Shown piece by piece: positions 30,363 through 38,476 of a DNA stretch of 64,000 bases. Made by a program: the position numbers and the translations under genes. Below the pieces are notes generated by a model, which saw only the letters and a program-made list of their open reading frames with translations, searched no databases and was not told where the DNA came from. The DNA is from Aliiroseovarius sediminilitoris (GTDB taxonomy: Bacteria; Pseudomonadota; Alphaproteobacteria; Rhodobacterales; Rhodobacteraceae): contig NZ_FOJB01000003.1 of the NCBI RefSeq assembly GCF_900109955.1, forward strand, positions 62,001-126,000, written 5' to 3'. Positions within the stretch are counted from its first letter, which is position 1. Every line of letters starts with the position of its first letter.

Positions 30363-31316
30363 CTACTTATAGATAGGAAGGTCCTCTTTCTTTCCAAGGA
30401 CTTCGACGCTTTCGCTCTCGTTGATCTGAGCCAGTTCGGCGATAACAGCGTCTTGATCGGCGTCAATCTGTGACCGGATTGCAACAAGTGCGTTTTCAGC
30501 GACAGCCCGAATGCCGTCTTCAAGGTCGTCGCGCCAGACCGACCAGACAGGAAACGGAAAGATCGGCGCGTCCGGCACCAGATGCAATTCGCCCCGGTCG
30601 AGATAGCGTTTGATATAGCGCGCTGGCAGATAGGCTGCCGCCTTGCGCATCCGGACATAATCCGCCGCCAAGGCACCAAGCGACAGTGTCATTCCGGGGT
30701 TGGTCAGTTGCGGCAATTCAAGCGCGTGGGCGTGGACAAATTCGGGGCCCCAGTCCACAAACACATAACGATCCGCTATGTCGTCAAGACCGGCCTCCCA
30801 CGACGCTGCAAGGACAAGCTCTTCGTCATATATCTTGCGCGCGGTCAGTCCTGGGCGCAGTTGTGGGCTGTACATCAGGCCAATCTGGACGATCCCTTCG
30901 ACAAGAAACCGCATGATGCGGTCAGGCATGCCAAGTTCCGCACGAATATTGAGGGTCGGCATGGCGTCCTGCATACGGTCAATCCAACGAAACCCCAGTC
31001 GCGGCCATAACGAATATTGGGCACCGATGCTAAGCGACTTGCTATAGCCCTCGGGCACCCCAATCTGCTGGCGCGCTTCTTCCCAAATCTTGACAAGTGA
31101 CAAAGCGTAGCGTTCGAACTCGCGCCCGGCGGGCGTAAGTTCAGCACCCGCTTTGGAGCGCAAGAAAAGCTGCTTTCCCAAACTTTCTTCCAACCGGGCC
31201 ACGCGCAAACTGACAGCTGATTGTGTCACCAGAAGGCGTTCGCTGGCATTCACGAAAGAACCGCTTGCGGCAACCTCCAGAAAGGTACGAATGAGAGTGA
31301 TATCCATGCGAGACAT
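30363..31316 (-). CDS. LysR-family regulator
   Basis: 317 residues. The N-terminal winged helix is MDITLIRTFLEVAASGSF then ASERLLVTQSAVSLRVARLEESLG, the standard LysR DNA-binding domain; the effector domain follows. It is divergent from the nitrilase operon with 287 bp between starts, so it most likely controls that operon. A second start three codons in (31307) is possible. The effector is unknown; an amino acid or polyamine-like compound would fit the operon content. Confidence 0.88.
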   Translation of the reverse strand: MSRMDITLIRTFLEVAASGSFVNASERLLVTQSAVSLRVARLEESLGKQLFLRSKAGAELTPAGREFERYALSLVKIWEEARQQIGVPEGYSKSLSIGAQYSLWPRLGFRWIDRMQDAMPTLNIRAELGMPDRIMRFLVEGIVQIGLMYSPQLRPGLTARKIYDEELVLAASWEAGLDDIADRYVFVDWGPEFVHAHALELPQLTNPGMTLSLGALAADYVRMRKAAAYLPARYIKRYLDRGELHLVPDAPIFPFPVWSVWRDDLEDGIRAVAENALVAIRSQIDADQDAVIAELAQINESESVEVLGKKEDLPIYK

Positions 31317-31603
31317 CCATAAGAAATACTGCGATCAGCCATGAGTGTAGCCAGTATTCGTCATTCTGTCTGTATCTCTTGATGCCCGATTCAGATGGCG
31401 AATGCCCGCCATTTCTTTCCTTGGGGAATATTCCGAAGGGCGTTTCGAAACCGCATGGTTTGCGAGCTGTTGGTGCTTGTTCAAATCCGGACATTCCGAC
31501 CTATTCTCAACCCAGATGTCCCGGCCAGGACACTCCACTGTTCTTCCCTTCAAAAGCAGAGTAGTCTGACCTGAAGCTGATGTTTTAACGGAGATCGACC
31601 TGA

Positions 31604-32575
31604 ATGACGCCATTCGCTATTGCCGGCGTGCAAATGTATGTGAACGCATTGCAACCAAACGTGGATGGGATGATCCATCGACTTGACGTTCTCATGGCAC
31701 GCTTCCCCTGGACCCAGATGGTATTGTTCAGCGAACTGGCCGCATACGGACCACTGAACAAATTTGCCTTGCCGCTTCAAAACGAAGCAATAGACCGGTT
31801 TCGAGACGCCGCGATAAAACACAAAATCTGGCTGATACCCGGGTCGATGTTTGAAAAAACCGAAGATGGTAAAATCTATAACACGTCGACGGTCATCAAC
31901 CCGCAAGGCGAAACAGTTGCGACCTATCGCAAGATGTTCCCCTTCCGCCCATACGAAGCTGGCGTCGAGGCTGGAACCGGGTTTTGCGTGTTCGACGTGC
32001 CCGAAGTTGGCCGGTTTGGATTGTCGATCTGCTATGACATCTGGTTCCCGGAAACGACCCGACAGCTTACCAGCCAAGGCGTCGAAGTCTTGCTGCACCC
32101 GGTTCTGACCGGCACCACCGACCGCGACGCGGAACTGGCCATTGCGCGTGCCACCGCCGCCCAATTTCAGTGCTATGTGATCGACGTCAATGGTCTGGGC
32201 GCTGGCGGCGTTGGCAAGTCCTGCGTGATCGACCCGTCGTCAATGGTTCTGCATCAGTCCGCTGGACAAGAGGACATGTTCCCGATTGAATTGGATCTGG
32301 ACCAGGTTCGCCGACAACGCGAAACCGGAATGAAAGGACTGGGTCAGGTTTTGAAAAGTTTCCGCGACCGATCTGTCGACTTTTCCATCTATGACCGCGA
32401 CAGCGGTGCCGACGCCTATCTGAAAACTCTTGGGCCTTTGGAAATTCCGACGCAAGGGTCGCGCGCCGGGCTGCATGTTGACGTTCCCGGCCAAACGACA
32501 CCTGCCTTGGGCGAAGACACTGCACCGACGCAGGATACACCACCGCAATATCCTGCAAAGATTTACAGCAGCTAA
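31604..32575 (+). CDS. Carbon-nitrogen hydrolase (nitrilase superfamily)
   Basis: 323 residues. The catalytic triad is visible: Glu44 (LFSELAAYG), Lys110 (TYRKMFPF) and Cys143 (SICYDIWFPE). Such enzymes hydrolyse amides or carbamoyl groups (for example omega-amidases, N-carbamoylputrescine amidase). The C-terminal ~60 residues (rich in Pro, Thr and Gln) extend past the usual ~270-residue fold and are probably disordered. It is first in a four-gene operon with a PLP decarboxylase (71 bp downstream), an ATP-grasp ligase and a C45 hydrolase, so it may remove an amide from a pathway intermediate. The substrate cannot be told from sequence. Confidence 0.87.
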   Translation: MTPFAIAGVQMYVNALQPNVDGMIHRLDVLMARFPWTQMVLFSELAAYGPLNKFALPLQNEAIDRFRDAAIKHKIWLIPGSMFEKTEDGKIYNTSTVINPQGETVATYRKMFPFRPYEAGVEAGTGFCVFDVPEVGRFGLSICYDIWFPETTRQLTSQGVEVLLHPVLTGTTDRDAELAIARATAAQFQCYVIDVNGLGAGGVGKSCVIDPSSMVLHQSAGQEDMFPIELDLDQVRRQRETGMKGLGQVLKSFRDRSVDFSIYDRDSGADAYLKTLGPLEIPTQGSRAGLHVDVPGQTTPALGEDTAPTQDTPPQYPAKIYSS

Positions 32576-32646
32576 GACAGGCGCCCTGACGACTAACGAT
32601 TGCGCTTCAGTCTGCTCTGCATCCGATTAAGAAGGGGAGACATTCG

Positions 32647-35403
32647 ATGCAATCAGTGAGCGACTATTACTCCGCGCTTCAACTACGGTCTGACCGCTGG
32701 AGCGCCTTGCGCGACGCCACCGCTGCCCTTTCGCGGGATGCCGAGGGTGAAAAATCAAAGCAGTTGATCGGAAAGATTGGACAGCTTTTTGACTCGCTGT
32801 CCTTGATCGAAGCCTATTGGGCTTTCCCTGGCATGCAGGCGTTTGACGTCATTCGCCGCCAGTTCGAACATCGGAAATATGACGACGTTGCCTTTTCGGT
32901 TCAGCGCATAACCCGGGCCCTGACGACGGGCGCATATCGGCGCAGGCAAGTTCCGCTGGAACGCGACAGCGTGGACGCCGACGAACATGAAGACGAGGTC
33001 GTCCAGTCTTTGGAAGCGCGGGCGTTGACCAAGCCCTATTTCGAGGTTCTGGTCGTCGATGACCTGAATGAACATCAGGAACGCTGGCTAAAAAACAGCT
33101 TTTCGCGAATGCGGCGCGATGAAGACCCGTTTCACTATGAAATCGTGGTGGTTCCCAGCCTGCAAGATGCGTTGATCGGGGTGCTGTTCAACCACAACAT
33201 TCAGGCCATCGTCGTGCGCCCCGGTTTGAAGATGGATTCACAGGTCGAACTGGCCATTCTGACACGCTATCTGAACCGCGCTGGCGGGATCGAGGATATC
33301 GAGGCGCTAGAGCCTGAAAGCTACGGACCGGAACTGTGCCGGTTGGTTGCAAAGGTCCGCCCTGAACTTGATGCCTATCTGGTCACGGATCGTTCGGTCG
33401 AAGATATCGCCGGGCTGGATCTGGGAATTTGTCGCCGAGTTTTCTATAATCAGGAAGATTTTCTTGAGCTTCATCTGAACATCCTGCGCGGCGTTCAGGC
33501 GCGGTATAAAACACCGTTTTTCACCGCACTGGTCGAATATTCAAAGCAACCCACCGGTGTGTTCCATGCCCTGCCCATCAGCCGCGGGAAATCCATTTCA
33601 CGCAGCCATTGGATTCAGGATATGGGCGCGTTTTACGGCCCCAACATCTTCATGGCCGAGACTTCGGCCACATCGGGCGGTCTGGACAGTTTGCTGGAAC
33701 CCCACGGCCCGATCAAAGAGGCGCAGGAACTGGCAAGTCGTGCGTTTGGCTCTAAGCAGACATTCTTTGCCACCAATGGCACGTCAACCTGCAATAAAAT
33801 CGTTGTGCAGGCTCTGGTTCGGCCGGGCGACATTGTTCTGGTCGATCGTGATTGCCACAAATCGCACCATTACGGCATGGTTCTGGCCGGGGCGCAGGTT
33901 GTCTATCTCGATAGCTATCCATTGAATGAATATTCGATGTATGGCGCGGTGCCATTGCGTGAGATCAAGCATCAACTGCTCAAACTCAAGGCCGAGGGCA
34001 AGCTGGAACGCGTGCGGATGCTGTTGCTGACGAACTGCACGTTCGATGGCATCGTTTACAACGTCGAGCGGGTGATGGAAGAATGTCTGGCGATCAAACC
34101 CGACCTTGTTTTCCTGTGGGATGAGGCCTGGTTCGCCTTTGCCCGGTTTGGGCCGACCTATCGTCAGCGCACCGCCATGAATGCCGCAAACAACCTGCGT
34201 GACCGACTGCGCACCAAGGATCACGAACGGGCTTATCTTGAACAGCAAAAGCAGCTTGAGAAAGCCGATGATGAAACCATCCTGAACACGCACCTCATCC
34301 CGCCGCCGGATGCCAGAATTCGTGTCTATGCAACCCATTCAACCCACAAGACCCTGACCTCGTTACGGCAAGGGTCGATGATCCATGTCAACGATCAGGA
34401 CTTCAAAGGCGAGGTCGAGGCCAGCTTCCGCGAAGCCTATATGACCCATACGTCAACGTCGCCAAATTACCAGATCATCGCCTCTTTGGATGTCGGCAGA
34501 CGGCAGGTAGAGCTTGAAGGCTTTGAATTTGTTCAGCGACAGGTTGAGGCCGCGATGTCGATGCGCCGGGCGATTTCGACCCATCCAAAATTGCAGAAAT
34601 ACTTCAAGGTTTTGACGGCGGGCGACATGATCCCCGAACAACATCGTGAAAGTGGCGTTCAAAGCTATTATGATTCCGAACAAGGTTGGACCGACATCTG
34701 GGATTGTTGGGAAAAGGACGAGTTCGTGCTTGATGCCACCCGCGTCACCCTTGCCGTGGGAGGCACCGGTTGGGACGGGGACACGTTCAAGACAAAGATC
34801 CTGATGGATAAATACGGAATTCAGATCAACAAGACCTCGCGCAACACGGTTTTGTTCATGACCAATATCGGCACAACCCGATCATCCGTCGCCTATCTGA
34901 TCGAGGTTCTGGTCGAAATTGCCTCAGACCTTGATGACCTGCTTGATGATGCGTCGATCATGGAACGGCGCGGATTTGAAAAGCGGGTCAACAATCTGAT
35001 GCATGATTTGCCGCCCCTGCCTGATTTCAGCCGGTTCCACGACAGTTTCCGCACGGACCAGACAACATCCGAAGGCGATATCCGTTCGGCGTTTTTTCTA
35101 AGTTATGATGAAAAGAACTGTGATTATCTGGAGCTTGATGGATCGTTGATATCCGCCGAGGAAGGCGGCGAGGATGTGGTGTCGGCCTCGTTCATCATTC
35201 CCTACCCCCCAGGCTTTCCGATCCTGGTGCCGGGGCAGGTCGTCAGCGCTGAAATCCTGGCCTTCATGCGCGCGCTGGATGTGAGCGAGATCCACGGATA
35301 CCGCGAAGACCTGGGGCTGCGGGTGTTTACCCAGGATGCTCTGAAGCAGCAGATGAAGACAAATACGGCCCGACTGAAACTGAATGCCGCGCGAAATAAA
35401 TAA
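32647..35403 (+). CDS. Large PLP-dependent Orn/Lys/Arg-decarboxylase-family enzyme
   Basis: 918 residues, longer than the ~710-760 of LdcC/AdiA. Residues about 130-200 resemble the receiver-like wing domain of inducible decarboxylases (FEVLVVDDLNEHQERWLKNS). The core has the PLP-phosphate site ATNGTSTCNKIVVQALVRPGD, the cofactor Asp in LVFLWDEAWFAFARF and the Schiff-base Lys568 in ATHSTHKTLTSLRQGS. The extra length includes a ~140-residue N-terminal helical region. A coiled, Lys/Glu-rich insertion (LRDRLRTKDHERAYLEQQKQ) sits before the PLP lysine. It should decarboxylate a basic or related amino acid to an amine. The ATP-grasp gene follows after 22 bp. Confidence 0.85.
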   Translation: MQSVSDYYSALQLRSDRWSALRDATAALSRDAEGEKSKQLIGKIGQLFDSLSLIEAYWAFPGMQAFDVIRRQFEHRKYDDVAFSVQRITRALTTGAYRRRQVPLERDSVDADEHEDEVVQSLEARALTKPYFEVLVVDDLNEHQERWLKNSFSRMRRDEDPFHYEIVVVPSLQDALIGVLFNHNIQAIVVRPGLKMDSQVELAILTRYLNRAGGIEDIEALEPESYGPELCRLVAKVRPELDAYLVTDRSVEDIAGLDLGICRRVFYNQEDFLELHLNILRGVQARYKTPFFTALVEYSKQPTGVFHALPISRGKSISRSHWIQDMGAFYGPNIFMAETSATSGGLDSLLEPHGPIKEAQELASRAFGSKQTFFATNGTSTCNKIVVQALVRPGDIVLVDRDCHKSHHYGMVLAGAQVVYLDSYPLNEYSMYGAVPLREIKHQLLKLKAEGKLERVRMLLLTNCTFDGIVYNVERVMEECLAIKPDLVFLWDEAWFAFARFGPTYRQRTAMNAANNLRDRLRTKDHERAYLEQQKQLEKADDETILNTHLIPPPDARIRVYATHSTHKTLTSLRQGSMIHVNDQDFKGEVEASFREAYMTHTSTSPNYQIIASLDVGRRQVELEGFEFVQRQVEAAMSMRRAISTHPKLQKYFKVLTAGDMIPEQHRESGVQSYYDSEQGWTDIWDCWEKDEFVLDATRVTLAVGGTGWDGDTFKTKILMDKYGIQINKTSRNTVLFMTNIGTTRSSVAYLIEVLVEIASDLDDLLDDASIMERRGFEKRVNNLMHDLPPLPDFSRFHDSFRTDQTTSEGDIRSAFFLSYDEKNCDYLELDGSLISAEEGGEDVVSASFIIPYPPGFPILVPGQVVSAEILAFMRALDVSEIHGYREDLGLRVFTQDALKQQMKTNTARLKLNAARNK

Positions 35404-35425
35404 TACAAGAACAGGGAGAACGATA

Positions 35426-36886
35426 ATGCCAACAGCTGTCTTGAAGAACATATCCGAGATCAGACGCCATTTTCACCGCAATGAGGATCCGATCTATTTT
35501 ATTTCAGCGACCAATTTCAACCTGTTGGGCCTGGACGAATGGTGCAAGAACTTCAAATACATATGCTATATCGACTGCTACGATGGCAAGCATCCCAACG
35601 TGTTCTGTCCGTCCGAACAACCTCATGCGGAATTCCAATCAATCGAAGATATCAACAACTACCTTCTTCAGCACAAGGAAGTGATCGACCTTGTGAAACG
35701 GCGTGGCGGCAAGCCAAAGTTTGTGTTTCTGATGTTCGATGAAGAAACCGAGCGTTTGGCCAAAGAACTGGGCGCCGAAGTGTGGTTTCCCAAGGCCAAG
35801 CTGCGCACCAAGATGGACAACAAGATCGAAACCGTGCGCATCGGCAACAAAGCCGGGGTTCCGTCGGTGCCCAACGTCCTGGCCGAAGTCAAAGACTATG
35901 ACGATCTGCGCAAGACCTGCGAGAAAGCAGGCATTGGTCACGATCTGGTCTTGCAGTCGGCCTTTGGGGACAGCGGGCACACGACGTTCTTCATCAAATC
36001 CGAGGCTGATTTCCGCCGCCACGAGCATGAAATCGTAGGCGAAGGCGAGATCAAGATCATGAAACGGATCGACTGCCGCGGCTCTGCGATTGAAGCCTGT
36101 GCCACCAGGCAAGGCACGATTGTCGGCCCGCTGATGACCGAGCTTGTCGGCTTCAAGGAACTGACCCCCTATCGTGGCGGCTGGTGTGGCAACGAAATCC
36201 TGTCCACCGCGTTCCCGCCCAAAGTGCGCCAGAAAGCCCGTGAACTGACCTTCAAATTCGGTGAGCAGTTGCGAAAAGAAGGCTATCGCGGCTATTTCGA
36301 GCTGGATTTCCTGATCGACAAAAAAACTGGTGACATCTGGTTGGGAGAGTTGAACCCGCGCATTACCGGCGCGTCTTCCATGACCAACCACGCCGCTTTT
36401 GCGCATGCCGACGCCCCTTTGTTTCTGTTCCATCTGCTTGAGTTTTCGAAAAAGAAATTCGAGCTGGATGTGAACGAGTTGAACAATCGCTGGGCCGACC
36501 CCGCGATGATCGACAGTTGGTCACAGATGGTTATCAAACACACGGAAGATAACGTCGATATTGCGACCGAAGTGCCCGAAACCGGCATTTACAGGATGCG
36601 CGAAGACGGCAGCATCAATTTTGACCGTTTCGACTATCACCGTCGTGCCGTGGAAAGCGAGAACGAGGCGTTTTTCCTGCGCATTCTACAGCCGGGTGAC
36701 TATCGATACGAGGGGGCCGACATCGGCATTCTTGTGACCCGTGGCCGTTCGATGACGCCGGGGTTCAAGTTGAACGAACGCGGCAAGCGCTGGATTCACG
36801 GCATCAAGCAAGGCGTGTCAGGCCGCCCCCTCCCGGTGGTCGAGGCGGGACCCGCGCTTGCCGATCCAGCCTTCAAAATACTGTAG
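35426..36886 (+). CDS. ATP-grasp ligase (biotin-carboxylase-like fold)
   Basis: 486 residues. An N-terminal pre-ATP-grasp region (EDPIYFISATNFNLLGLDEW) precedes the nucleotide-binding core: KLRTKMDNKIETVRIGNKAGVPSVP, the glycine-rich loop QSAFGDSGHTTFFIKS, and the metal-binding end GYFELDFLIDKKTGDIWLGE followed by LNPRITGASSMTN. ATP-grasp enzymes activate a carboxylate as acyl-phosphate and join it to an amine. Here the amine could be the decarboxylase product. No biotin-carrier gene is nearby, so a biotin carboxylase role is unlikely. The ATG at 35426 follows AGGGAGAACG. Confidence 0.83.
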   Translation: MPTAVLKNISEIRRHFHRNEDPIYFISATNFNLLGLDEWCKNFKYICYIDCYDGKHPNVFCPSEQPHAEFQSIEDINNYLLQHKEVIDLVKRRGGKPKFVFLMFDEETERLAKELGAEVWFPKAKLRTKMDNKIETVRIGNKAGVPSVPNVLAEVKDYDDLRKTCEKAGIGHDLVLQSAFGDSGHTTFFIKSEADFRRHEHEIVGEGEIKIMKRIDCRGSAIEACATRQGTIVGPLMTELVGFKELTPYRGGWCGNEILSTAFPPKVRQKARELTFKFGEQLRKEGYRGYFELDFLIDKKTGDIWLGELNPRITGASSMTNHAAFAHADAPLFLFHLLEFSKKKFELDVNELNNRWADPAMIDSWSQMVIKHTEDNVDIATEVPETGIYRMREDGSINFDRFDYHRRAVESENEAFFLRILQPGDYRYEGADIGILVTRGRSMTPGFKLNERGKRWIHGIKQGVSGRPLPVVEAGPALADPAFKIL

Positions 36887-36898
36887 GTCCCTGCACCC

Positions 36899-37879
36899 AT
36901 GCGACTGAATTGGCGCGCCATTTCCGAAGCTGAACCCGGTCCTAAATGGGCCGGGTTGTTTGAAGAATACTGGCCCGCCTATCATCGTTGGTGGATGAGC
37001 GAAGGCGCAGAAGCCCGACCCGGATATTGGGACAGCCTGCAAGCCTTGAAAAAGCATATGCCCGAAATGCTGCCGCTTTATGGAGAGCTTTGTGAACTGG
37101 CGGGCGGTTCTGACCACGCCGCGCGATTTCTGAGCTTTTATTGCCCGCCTGCCTATTTGTCCGGCTGTTCGCAGGCAATCTGGCCGGGGGCAGAGCCGGT
37201 TCTGGTGCGCAACTATGATTATAGCCCGCACGCCTTTGACAGCCTGATCCTGCACACCAGATGGAAAGGCAGAACCGTAATGGGCACCAGTGACGGTTTG
37301 TGGGGACTTGTGGATGGTGTGAACGACGCGGGTCTTGCGATCTCGCTTACGTTTGGCGGGCGTCGGGTGGTGGGTGACGGCTTTGGCGTGCCATTGATCC
37401 TGCGCTATGTTTTGCAAACCTGCGAGACTGCGGCAGAGGCCGGTAAAGTGCTGGCGCGTGTGCCCACGCATATGAGCTATAACGTCACCGTGGTGGATGC
37501 AAAACGCCGCTATCTGACGGCTTTGATGGCACCGGATCGGGCGACGCTCATTACCCATGCGGCTGTTGCAACAAATCATCAGGAAAAGGTCGAATGGGCA
37601 AGCCACGCGCGGCTTACCGCGACAGTCGAGCGCGAACGTTTCTTACTTCAGCGCCTCACCCTGCACACCGAACCCGAAGAAAAATTCATCGGTGCCTTTT
37701 TGAAACCACCGTTGTACTCGTCCGCTTTCGATCATGGTTTCGGCACGCTTTACACCGCAGTCTATCGACCGAGAAAACTGGAAATGGAAGTTTACTGGCC
37801 GAAAGCACGTTGGCGGCTGGACCTTCGGAAATTCCAGGAAGGTGAACAACAGATTTTCACGCCAACACTTGCGGTCTAA
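36899..37879 (+). CDS. C45-family Ntn-hydrolase / acyltransferase
   Basis: 326 residues of the acyl-CoA:6-aminopenicillanate acyltransferase (IAT)-like family. The nucleophile is Cys90 in YLSGCSQAIWPG, preceded by Gly89, so autocleavage at Gly89-Cys90 is expected, as at Gly102-Cys103 of the fungal enzyme. The following RNYDYSP stretch is the conserved partner motif. No signal peptide is seen. It starts 12 bp after the ATP-grasp gene. It would cleave or transfer an amide-linked group, a plausible final or recycling step for a product of the ATP-grasp ligase. Confidence 0.83.
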   Translation: MRLNWRAISEAEPGPKWAGLFEEYWPAYHRWWMSEGAEARPGYWDSLQALKKHMPEMLPLYGELCELAGGSDHAARFLSFYCPPAYLSGCSQAIWPGAEPVLVRNYDYSPHAFDSLILHTRWKGRTVMGTSDGLWGLVDGVNDAGLAISLTFGGRRVVGDGFGVPLILRYVLQTCETAAEAGKVLARVPTHMSYNVTVVDAKRRYLTALMAPDRATLITHAAVATNHQEKVEWASHARLTATVERERFLLQRLTLHTEPEEKFIGAFLKPPLYSSAFDHGFGTLYTAVYRPRKLEMEVYWPKARWRLDLRKFQEGEQQIFTPTLAV

Positions 37880-37908
37880 GACTCCGCCGATTTCGTCAAG
37901 CCAATACA

Positions 37909-38415
37909 TCATCCGCTGTGTGGTGGGACGTAAGGTTGGACCTTCGGGATCCAGCGCGGCACCGAGGCTTTGTAATCCAGGTATTCCTTGCCAAATCGCC
38001 GCGCCAGGCCAGGTTCTTCCACGAAGGCAAAATAGATGGTGTTGAGTATAAAGAACCCCACGCCCCACCCCAACAGCGCCAAGCTGCCTAACGCAACTGC
38101 TTCCGCAATGATGATCAAAATGACCGACGTGAGCATTGGGTTGCGCATATGACGGTAAGGTCCGCTGACGACAAACTTTTTCGGCGGATCCCAGGGCGCG
38201 GGCGTTCCTTCGCCCTCGTGCAAGAACTGCGTCATCGTCTTGATGGCAAGCGCAAATGCCGGTGCGGCCAAGATCGCGGCCATCACCCATGCCAGCGCGC
38301 CACTCTGCAACCGGTTGAAGGGCCAGCCATCGCCAAGCCATTGGATGAATAACGGAACATAGATCAAGGCCGTCCCCGGCAGGATCAAAACCGCTTTGGT
38401 CATTCGCCAGAACAT
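37909..38415 (-). CDS. Isoprenylcysteine carboxylmethyltransferase-like membrane protein
   Basis: 168 residues with about four membrane segments. The C-terminal half carries the ICMT/phospholipid methyltransferase signature (FVVSGPYRHMRNPMLTSV and EEPGLARRFGKEYLDYKASVPRWIP), which binds S-adenosylmethionine. Bacterial members act on unknown lipids or small molecules. It converges on the C45 gene with 29 bp between stops and lies 61 bp downstream of the Fe-alcohol dehydrogenase on the same strand. Confidence 0.82.
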   Translation of the reverse strand: MFWRMTKAVLILPGTALIYVPLFIQWLGDGWPFNRLQSGALAWVMAAILAAPAFALAIKTMTQFLHEGEGTPAPWDPPKKFVVSGPYRHMRNPMLTSVILIIIAEAVALGSLALLGWGVGFFILNTIYFAFVEEPGLARRFGKEYLDYKASVPRWIPKVQPYVPPHSG

Positions 38416-38476
38416 ACCGATATCCTATCACAACTGTCCTGCCACGGCAGTCCGGTTCTGGACATATCCGCTTGGC

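What the first reader, a model, noticed from the sequence alone, without database searches (positions are those of the whole stretch)
30363..37879. Candidate novel pathway: LysR-controlled nitrilase, large decarboxylase, ATP-grasp ligase and C45 hydrolase operon
Four enzymes lie in one operon (gaps 71, 22 and 12 bp) with a divergent LysR. Together they can make an amine by decarboxylation, join it to a carboxylate with ATP, and cleave or rearrange amide bonds with two different amidase folds. All catalytic residues are intact (E44/K110/C143; PLP Lys568; ATP-grasp glycine loop and metal residues; Gly89-Cys90). I know no characterised pathway with this set. The product may be an amino-acid/amine conjugate used as a signal, osmolyte, metal binder or storage compound.
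Basis: partly seen in the sequence, partly recalled or inferred. Interest (0 to 1): 0.78.

Follow-up and report, generated by a model that had tools for sequence, protein, structure and literature searches.

The report
Conserved four-enzyme omega-amino-acid gene cassette
Four neighbouring enzyme genes of a marine bacterium travel together through many proteobacteria as one unit, apparently to handle GABA-like amino acids, by a chemistry that I could not match to any described pathway.

Summary
The four-gene operon is real: nitrilase-fold amidase (NIT), large OKR-fold decarboxylase (DC), ATP-grasp ligase (GRASP), C45 Ntn-hydrolase; gaps 71/22/12 bp. It is a conserved unit. In 80 related loci the order NIT-DC-GRASP-C45 is kept; the 7 missing genes are at contig ends. 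In 292 genomes of the order, GRASP and its C45 occur in the same 59, full-length DC in 57 of those. LysR is not linked elsewhere: a sister genome shows the empty site, with the cassette on another contig. Recurrent neighbours are importers and catabolic genes (GABA aminotransferase; ectoine, arginine or glutarate-type genes). DC is not a typical Lys/Arg decarboxylase: Glu526 of LdcI is Asn, Ser373 Arg, the PGE glutamate Gln; paralogues with this signature sit beside Asp/Ala-type antiporters. I infer an acidic-amino-acid decarboxylase giving GABA or beta-alanine, and a ligase/C45 pair that makes and breaks an amide of that omega-amino acid; the partner is unknown and no reaction is shown. Paper searches of the open-access library listed no description. 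GRASP lacks the biotin-carboxylase motif, although databases use that name.

The parts
31604..32575 (+). NIT: nitrilase-superfamily C-N hydrolase (amidase), E44-K110-E118-C143
   Evidence: best solved relative Nit2 2w1v
32647..35403 (+). DC: large PLP-dependent OKR-fold decarboxylase of the Rv2531c type, PLP Lys568, signature R574/N728/Q864
35426..36886 (+). GRASP: ATP-grasp ligase (NF005096, 'biotin carboxylase' by name only)
   Evidence: model pLDDT 89, Foldseek
36899..37879 (+). C45: Ntn amidohydrolase of the autoproteolytic C45 family, nucleophile Cys90
   Evidence: model pLDDT 94, Foldseek to isopenicillin N acyltransferase
31389..38473 (.). Block of 7085 bp holding the cassette and a PEMT-family methyltransferase gene, absent at the same site of a sister genome (about 40 bp there, L155)
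37909..38415 (-). PEMT/isoprenylcysteine-methyltransferase-like gene inside the inserted block; no relative in the 80 cassette loci
30363..31316 (-). LysR regulator: neighbour of the insertion site, not a linked part of the unit

Best explanation
The operon is a mobile, conserved metabolic cassette for omega-amino acids (GABA, beta-alanine or 5-aminovalerate type) that works mainly in uptake and breakdown. Step 1 (inferred): DC removes the alpha-carboxylate of an acidic amino acid (Glu or Asp type) and so makes the omega-amino acid; in the DC-less arginine type, genes beside the cassette could supply GABA instead. Step 2 (inferred): GRASP uses ATP to make an acyl phosphate and join the omega-amino acid to a partner amine or amino acid as an amide. 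Step 3 (inferred): the C45 hydrolase, found in every GRASP genome of the order sample, cleaves that amide again; NIT cleaves a related primary or omega-amide. The freed omega-amino acid goes to GABA-type aminotransferases and semialdehyde dehydrogenases. The logic resembles transient gamma-glutamylation, or the black-ebony-tan cycle of insects (recalled). Shown: the unit, its co-occurrence, the intact active sites, the altered DC pocket and the gene neighbourhoods. Not shown: any reaction.
For: Unit: 80 of 80 loci have DC and GRASP, 79 C45, 74 NIT, the misses at contig ends; 59 of 292 order genomes have GRASP, the same 59 a strong C45, 57 of them full-length DC. Gene orders differ outside the family while the genes stay together, and pairwise distances of GRASP, C45 and DC correlate at 0.94-0.97 over 88 loci. 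Acidic substrate of DC: R574, N728 and Q864 are invariant in 21 cassette DCs, against Ser, Glu and Glu in LdcI and in an ordinary OKR enzyme of the order; all 3 full-length paralogues listed for the 292 genomes have an AspT-type antiporter directly downstream, and one also GltS. Omega-amino-acid theme: a GABA-aminotransferase-type gene within 11 kb in 35 of 113 loci, a PuuR-like regulator in 19, TAXI and fused TRAP importer genes in 33 each; SDF symporter in Cupriavidus; arginine-to-GABA genes in the DC-less Shinella type; GABA aminotransferase, an acyl-CoA dehydrogenase and a glutarate CoA-transferase-like gene in a DC-less congener. In the window's own genome a related TAXI, fused TRAP, USP and PRK07483 aminotransferase set lies on another contig.
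Against: No substrate or partner is known. The cassette in two genomes sits inside an ectoine/hydroxyectoine cluster (NCBIfam in L119; BLAST labels in L118), which points as much to diaminobutyrate as to Asp. TRAP and SDF transporters are only a rough guide to substrate. The AspT-linked paralogues are about 48% identical and differ from the cassette DCs at positions 580 and 608, so their substrate may differ. No AspT or GltS relative was found beside the cassette loci searched. 78 of 113 loci had no GABA-aminotransferase-type gene within 11 kb, and none was labelled in the window's own flanks. NIT and DC are missing in some variants, so the four need not form one linear route. The beta-keto acid cleavage enzyme beside the own-genome aminotransferase would fit a beta-amino acid instead.
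Confidence: 0.38

Rival explanations
1. Shielded catabolism of a basic amino acid, like gamma-glutamylation: DC makes a diamine from Lys, Orn, Arg or DABA (or from its N-acyl form made first by GRASP), an aminotransferase and an aldehyde dehydrogenase oxidise the free end, C45 and NIT remove the shield, and the omega-amino acid goes to GabT.
For: PuuR-like regulators (149 and 141 bits, below the cut-off 211), class-III aminotransferases next to cassettes, glutarate-type, arginine and ectoine contexts.
Against: The active-site signature of DC departs from the Lys and Arg decarboxylases shown in the alignments; paralogues with the signature pair with Asp/Ala-type antiporters.
Confidence: 0.25
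2. DC and NIT form an amide route: DC turns an amino acid into an amide or an omega-amino amide (oxidative decarboxylation, or decarboxylation of glutamine), and NIT hydrolyses it, as DavB and DavA do for lysine (recalled). GRASP and C45 act on a side branch.
For: NIT matches amidases, Nit2 and N-carbamoylputrescine amidase; Asn and Gln replace Glu in the DC pocket.
Against: The pair most strictly kept is GRASP with C45, not DC with NIT; rhizobial and some other loci (L122, L123, L129, L130) have DC without NIT nearby.
Confidence: 0.13
3. Biosynthesis of an amine or amino-acid conjugate kept as osmolyte, store or signal; C45 and NIT recycle it.
For: A ligase with a matching hydrolase can build and recycle a store; two loci lie within a compatible-solute cluster.
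Against: Recurrent neighbours are importers and catabolic genes of several unrelated kinds; the compatible-solute cluster is the breakdown set (EhuR, DoeA, DoeB, EutB, EutC), not synthesis.
Confidence: 0.14
4. Four unrelated genes that happen to be adjacent.
For: None found; the window's own flanks are not conserved.
Against: Strict co-occurrence and conserved linkage under changed gene order.
Confidence: 0.01

Closest known systems
Rv2531c of Mycobacterium tuberculosis (9N0O named so in PMC12910592; 9N0N and 9N0P have nearly the same sequence)
   Same: Full-length match of the DC profile (1128 bits) with the same R, N and Q signature; also of unknown activity according to PMC12910592 (passages read).
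   Different: Its gene context was not examined here; PMC4569260 (passages read) reports that its deletion mutant grew on arginine like wild type.
Gamma-glutamylation (Puu) pathway of putrescine breakdown
   Same: Idea of making and breaking an amide during amine breakdown; a PuuR-like regulator beside some cassettes.
   Different: ATP-grasp ligase in place of the glutamine-synthetase-type PuuA, and C45 in place of the PuuD hydrolase (the Puu enzymes are recalled).
Black-ebony-tan cycle of Drosophila (recalled)
   Same: PLP decarboxylase giving beta-alanine, ATP-driven amide synthesis, hydrolysis by a protein of the C45 kind.
   Different: Ebony is NRPS-like, not ATP-grasp; the setting is neurotransmitter and pigment metabolism.
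LdcI/AdiA-type Lys and Arg decarboxylases
   Same: OKR fold family, STHK motif with the PLP lysine.
   Different: 918 aa with extra N-terminal sequence; Glu526 to Asn, Ser373 to Arg, PGE to PGQ; far below the NCBIfam cut-offs.
Biotin carboxylase / PurK
   Same: ATP-grasp fold, Foldseek E from 6.5e-18, 11-16% identity in the rows shown.
   Different: The QVEH stretch after the conserved Arg reads TGAS; no carboxyltransferase or biotin carrier recognised beside the cassette, without a dedicated search.
Isopenicillin N acyltransferase (2X1C)
   Same: C45 fold, TM 0.68.
   Different: 12% identity, different context; substrate unknown.

Membership tests
NCBIfam NF005096 (PRK06524, 'biotin carboxylase') | Score above the curated cut-off of 684 bits | tested here: met
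   759.5 bits
Biotin carboxylase (enzyme) | ATP-grasp fold | tested here: met
   Foldseek best hits are biotin carboxylases and PurK
Biotin carboxylase (enzyme) | Bicarbonate/biotin motif R-x-Q-V-E-H (role recalled) | tested here: not met
   Profile alignment: NPRIQVEH of pyruvate carboxylase faces NPRITGAS; G315 and S317 invariant in 33 sequences
Biotin carboxylase (enzyme) | Biotin carrier protein or carboxyltransferase in the locus | tested here: inconclusive
   None recognised by eye; the label set held no such reference and no dedicated search was made
Orn/Lys/Arg decarboxylase (OKR class) | PLP lysine in an STHK motif | tested here: met
   K568 invariant in 21 sequences
Orn/Lys/Arg decarboxylase (OKR class) | Active-site Glu equal to LdcI Glu526 (role recalled) | tested here: not met
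   N728 in all 21 sequences and in Rv2531c; Glu in LdcI 9e0m, in AdiA-type 6q6i and in an ordinary OKR enzyme of the order
Orn/Lys/Arg decarboxylase (OKR class) | Curated cut-off of a Lys, Arg or Orn decarboxylase model | tested here: not met
   Best 212 bits against 968
C45 autoproteolytic acyltransferase/hydrolase | Cut-off of NF040521 and Cys nucleophile with Arg, Asp, Asn, Asn, Arg (roles recalled) | tested here: met
   180.8 against 85 bits; C90, R104, D107, N142, N226, R245 invariant in 31 sequences
C45 autoproteolytic acyltransferase/hydrolase | Autoproteolysis before the Cys | not testable with these tools
   Needs purified protein
Nitrilase superfamily | Glu-Lys-Cys triad | tested here: met
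   E44, K110, C143 invariant in 21 sequences
N-carbamoylputrescine amidase or formamidase | Curated equivalog cut-off | tested here: not met
   70 against 410 and 76 against 406 bits
Puu gamma-glutamylation pathway | Glutamine-synthetase-type ligase and class-I GATase-type hydrolase in the cassette (recalled) | tested here: not met
   The ligase is ATP-grasp, the hydrolase C45; PuuA and PuuD were not searched for elsewhere in the genome
LysR-controlled operon | LysR gene linked to the operon across genomes | tested here: not met
   1 of 80 loci; unlinked in G007 and G011, no match in G006. Against this: in 13 genomes of the genus LysR is in 3 of 4 with the cassette and 0 of 9 without, so control in trans is open

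The most novel reading that the evidence does not exclude
A bacterial counterpart of the black-ebony-tan cycle: a new clade of OKR-fold decarboxylases that act on acidic amino acids (Rv2531c included) feeds an ATP-grasp ligase that couples the omega-amino acid to an amine, and an obligate C45 partner releases it again. This would be an omega-aminoacyl shield for amine breakdown, distinct from gamma-glutamylation.
Probability: 0.22. Interest if true: 0.75.

Novelty: new variant of a known kind. Interest (0 to 1): 0.55.

Why it matters
A four-enzyme unit spread over alphaproteobacteria, Cupriavidus plasmids and other genomes of the phylum has, as far as the searched library shows, no assigned chemistry, and its ligase carries a misleading name (biotin carboxylase). 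The neighbourhood and active-site evidence narrows it to omega-amino-acid metabolism and gives a direct prediction for an orphan decarboxylase clade, including a mycobacterial enzyme with a solved structure and no known activity. Simple assays with laboratory enzymes would decide it.

Tried and rejected
LysR as a linked part: rejected. A link to S. meliloti SMa0680/SMa0682: searched (passages of three papers), not shown to be the same genes. Biotin carboxylase activity: rejected on motif. Distant GRASP relative in G1124 (L139): beside an alpha/beta hydrolase; no cassette gene was found there by tblastn, so not informative. Weaker C45 paralogues, looked at in L142-L147: other neighbourhoods, set aside. 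Paper searches for the gene set or its parts: no paper describing it among those listed. Only titles and starts of abstracts were seen; one search listed 15 of 57 papers and one search listed 10 of 21. My first reading (basic amino acid, gamma-glutamylation-like) was put second.

Limits. The neighbour tally covers 113 loci, not de-duplicated by genome and many cut by contig ends, with my own codon-based gene calls; labels are best BLAST matches to a small set of reference proteins. The window itself is not among the 113. The co-occurrence counts are not corrected for phylogeny, and the genome searches score only a few first-look candidates per genome (up to 3 for DC, 7 for C45), so further paralogues may have been missed. 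Of 288 relatives in genome contigs only the best 80 were kept by the tool, so that set leans to close relatives. The strong/weak cut for DC (above 1100 bits) and C45 (444 bits and more) was set by eye on the listed scores; weaker matches (ordinary OKR enzymes; C45 paralogues, four of them in genomes without GRASP) were left out of the count.
Full report
OBSERVATION. Profiles give CN_hydrolase, OKR_DC_1, NF005096 (ATP-grasp) and C45_proenzyme. Aligned with diverged homologues, the catalytic residues are invariant: E44, K110, E118, C143 in NIT (21 sequences); K568 in DC (21); E308, N310, R312 of the ATP-grasp core in GRASP (33); C90, R104, D107, N142, N226, R245 in C45 (31).

A STRICT UNIT. A scan of species genomes found 288 relatives of GRASP; the tool kept the best 80, nearly all from records named as roseobacters or Rhodobacteraceae, a few only as Alphaproteobacteria. 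In these, DC is present in 80 of 80, C45 in 79, NIT in 74, in the order NIT-DC-GRASP-C45; the seven misses are loci that begin or end inside the cassette at a contig end. In 292 genomes of the order, GRASP is in 59, a C45 of at least 444 bits in exactly those 59, and a full-length DC in 57 of them plus one other genome. The two GRASP genomes without DC carry the GRASP-C45-NIT type. The distribution is patchy: 7 of 21 genomes of the window's own genus, 10 of 398 in a phylum sample, and 6 of 244, 10 of 199, 2 of 48 and 4 of 148 in four further, partly overlapping order samples (one of the last four, G1124, is a weak match without the other genes). Outside the family the gene order changes (NIT-GRASP-C45-DC; C45-NIT apart from DC-GRASP) but the genes stay together. 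Pairwise distances of GRASP, C45 and DC correlate at 0.94-0.97 over 88 loci (0.68-0.77 within 69 close relatives, 0.75-0.90 within the other 19).

LYSR IS NOT LINKED. Only 1 of 80 loci has a LysR relative nearby. Among 21 genomes, the own one included, LysR occurs in three. In G007 it lies on another contig than the cassette, between FeADH and DUF481, as in the window but with no cassette there. BLAST shows that L155 1-9282 matches window 47774-38474 and L155 9323-11346 matches window 31388-29365. So 7085 bp with the cassette and a PEMT gene lie in the window where the sister has about 40 bp. In G011 LysR and GRASP are about 52 kb apart. Against this reading: in 13 genomes of the genus, LysR is in 3 of the 4 with the cassette and in none of the 9 without; shared ancestry or control in trans could explain it.

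SURROUNDINGS. Beyond the four genes no neighbour is constant, but the recurring ones tell a story (113 loci): a GABA-aminotransferase-type gene in 35, TAXI and fused TRAP transporter genes in 33 each, aminotransferase PRK07483 in 26, universal stress protein in 22, PuuR-like regulator in 19, CaiB-type CoA-transferase in 14. Example members were checked with NCBIfam and Pfam. In the window's own genome a PRK07483 aminotransferase, a TAXI protein, a fused TRAP permease and a USP lie together on contig C1 beside a beta-keto acid cleavage enzyme. The aminotransferase is 59-74% identical to its 27 close relatives among the cassette loci, the TAXI protein 58-81% (33 loci), the permease 51-54% (32 loci); the USP only 35-38% (6 loci). 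Other settings: an ectoine/hydroxyectoine breakdown cluster with EhuR, DoeA, DoeB, EutB and EutC (L119; EhuR, DoeA, DoeB and EutB over a curated cut-off, EutC on a truncated ORF below it) and a like cluster in L118 by BLAST labels; arginine breakdown with 5-guanidino-2-oxopentanoate decarboxylase and agmatinase family genes, without DC (L113, L131); GABA aminotransferase, acyl-CoA dehydrogenase and a CoA-transferase nearest to succinate-glutarate CoA-transferase (540 bits, cut-off 750), without DC, in a genome of the window's own genus (L127); rhizobial plasmids with DC-GRASP-C45, one near nif genes and broken. Several variants have an importer of their own next to them: TAXI-TRAP, DctP-TRAP, amino acid permease, SDF symporter, peptide-type ABC transporter.

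THE DECARBOXYLASE. Its only full-length solved relatives are the 9N0N, 9N0O and 9N0P chains, at about 1128 bits; 9N0O is Rv2531c, whose activity is not known (PMC12910592, passages). Against LdcI and an AdiA-type enzyme the alignments show Asn728 for Glu526, Arg574 for Ser373 and Gln864 for the PGE glutamate (residue numbers counted by me from the printed rows; the role of Glu526 is recalled). The three residues are invariant in 21 cassette DCs and present in two paralogues, while an ordinary OKR enzyme of the same order has Ser, Glu, Glu; the paralogues differ at positions 580 and 608. The three full-length paralogues listed for the 292 genomes each have an aspartate-alanine-type antiporter directly downstream (NCBIfam over cut-off in L148 and L149; by BLAST in L167); L148 also has a sodium/glutamate symporter (312 bits, cut-off 311). 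I infer that this clade decarboxylates acidic amino acids.

LIGASE AND HYDROLASE. The GRASP model (pLDDT 89) is nearest to biotin carboxylases and PurK, but the carboxylase motif QVEH is TGAS, so an amide ligase is likelier. The C45 model (pLDDT 94) matches isopenicillin N acyltransferase. The co-occurrence of the two suggests one amide, made and broken.

MECHANISM. The theme common to the settings is an omega-amino acid: GABA from Glu by DC, GABA from Arg in one DC-less type, and GABA aminotransferases nearby. I propose that DC supplies the omega-amino acid, GRASP couples it to a partner, and C45 and NIT hydrolyse such amides, within uptake and breakdown. The reactions and the partner are inference. 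Rivals are a shielded route for basic amino acids, an amide route through DC and NIT, and a stored conjugate.

NOVELTY. None of the eight paper searches aimed at the set or its parts listed a paper that describes it; the library holds open-access papers only, listings of two searches were partial, and only titles and starts of abstracts were seen. The enzyme families are known; the combination and its substrate are not assigned there. I file it as a new variant of a known kind, amino-acid breakdown by way of a transient amide.

Noticed in passing
window 31389-38473; L155 (G007:C2): The cassette is a clean insertion between FeADH and LysR; the sister species has it on another contig, so it moves between sites.
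   Followed up: yes
L148, L149, L167: Rv2531c-type decarboxylase paralogues beside one or two AspT-type antiporters and a calcium/proton exchanger, which looks like a pH or proton-motive-force system.
   Followed up: partly
L111, L112, L115 (Rhizobium and Sinorhizobium plasmids): DC-GRASP-C45 on rhizobial plasmids, in L112 in the same stretch as nif genes; in L112 C45 is cut short before transposase genes and DC is split; the seven S. medicae records listed hold only part of GRASP.
   Followed up: partly
L143-L147: A second, weaker-scoring C45 type; by eye it recurs beside a short RHH-like protein and a protein of about 360 aa; function unknown. In L142 it lies beside an ordinary OKR decarboxylase.
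   Followed up: no
L126, L135, L136, L150, L151: A glyoxalase/VOC-family gene recurs beside several cassettes (by eye also in L127 and L134).
   Followed up: no
L166:8428-9192 (-): Beta-keto acid cleavage enzyme overlapping the end of the PRK07483 aminotransferase gene in the window's own genome; another BKACE follows the aminotransferase in L033.
   Followed up: partly
L139 (G1124): Distant ATP-grasp relative of GRASP beside an alpha/beta hydrolase, without the cassette.
   Followed up: no
plasmid records H1, H3, H4, H10, H12 and others: GRASP is annotated as 'biotin carboxylase', and DC as a class I/II aminotransferase or beta-eliminating lyase; these names mislead.
   Followed up: yes
genus of the window (G000-G012): LysR relatives occur in 3 of 4 genomes with the cassette and 0 of 9 without, though unlinked in two.
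   Followed up: partly
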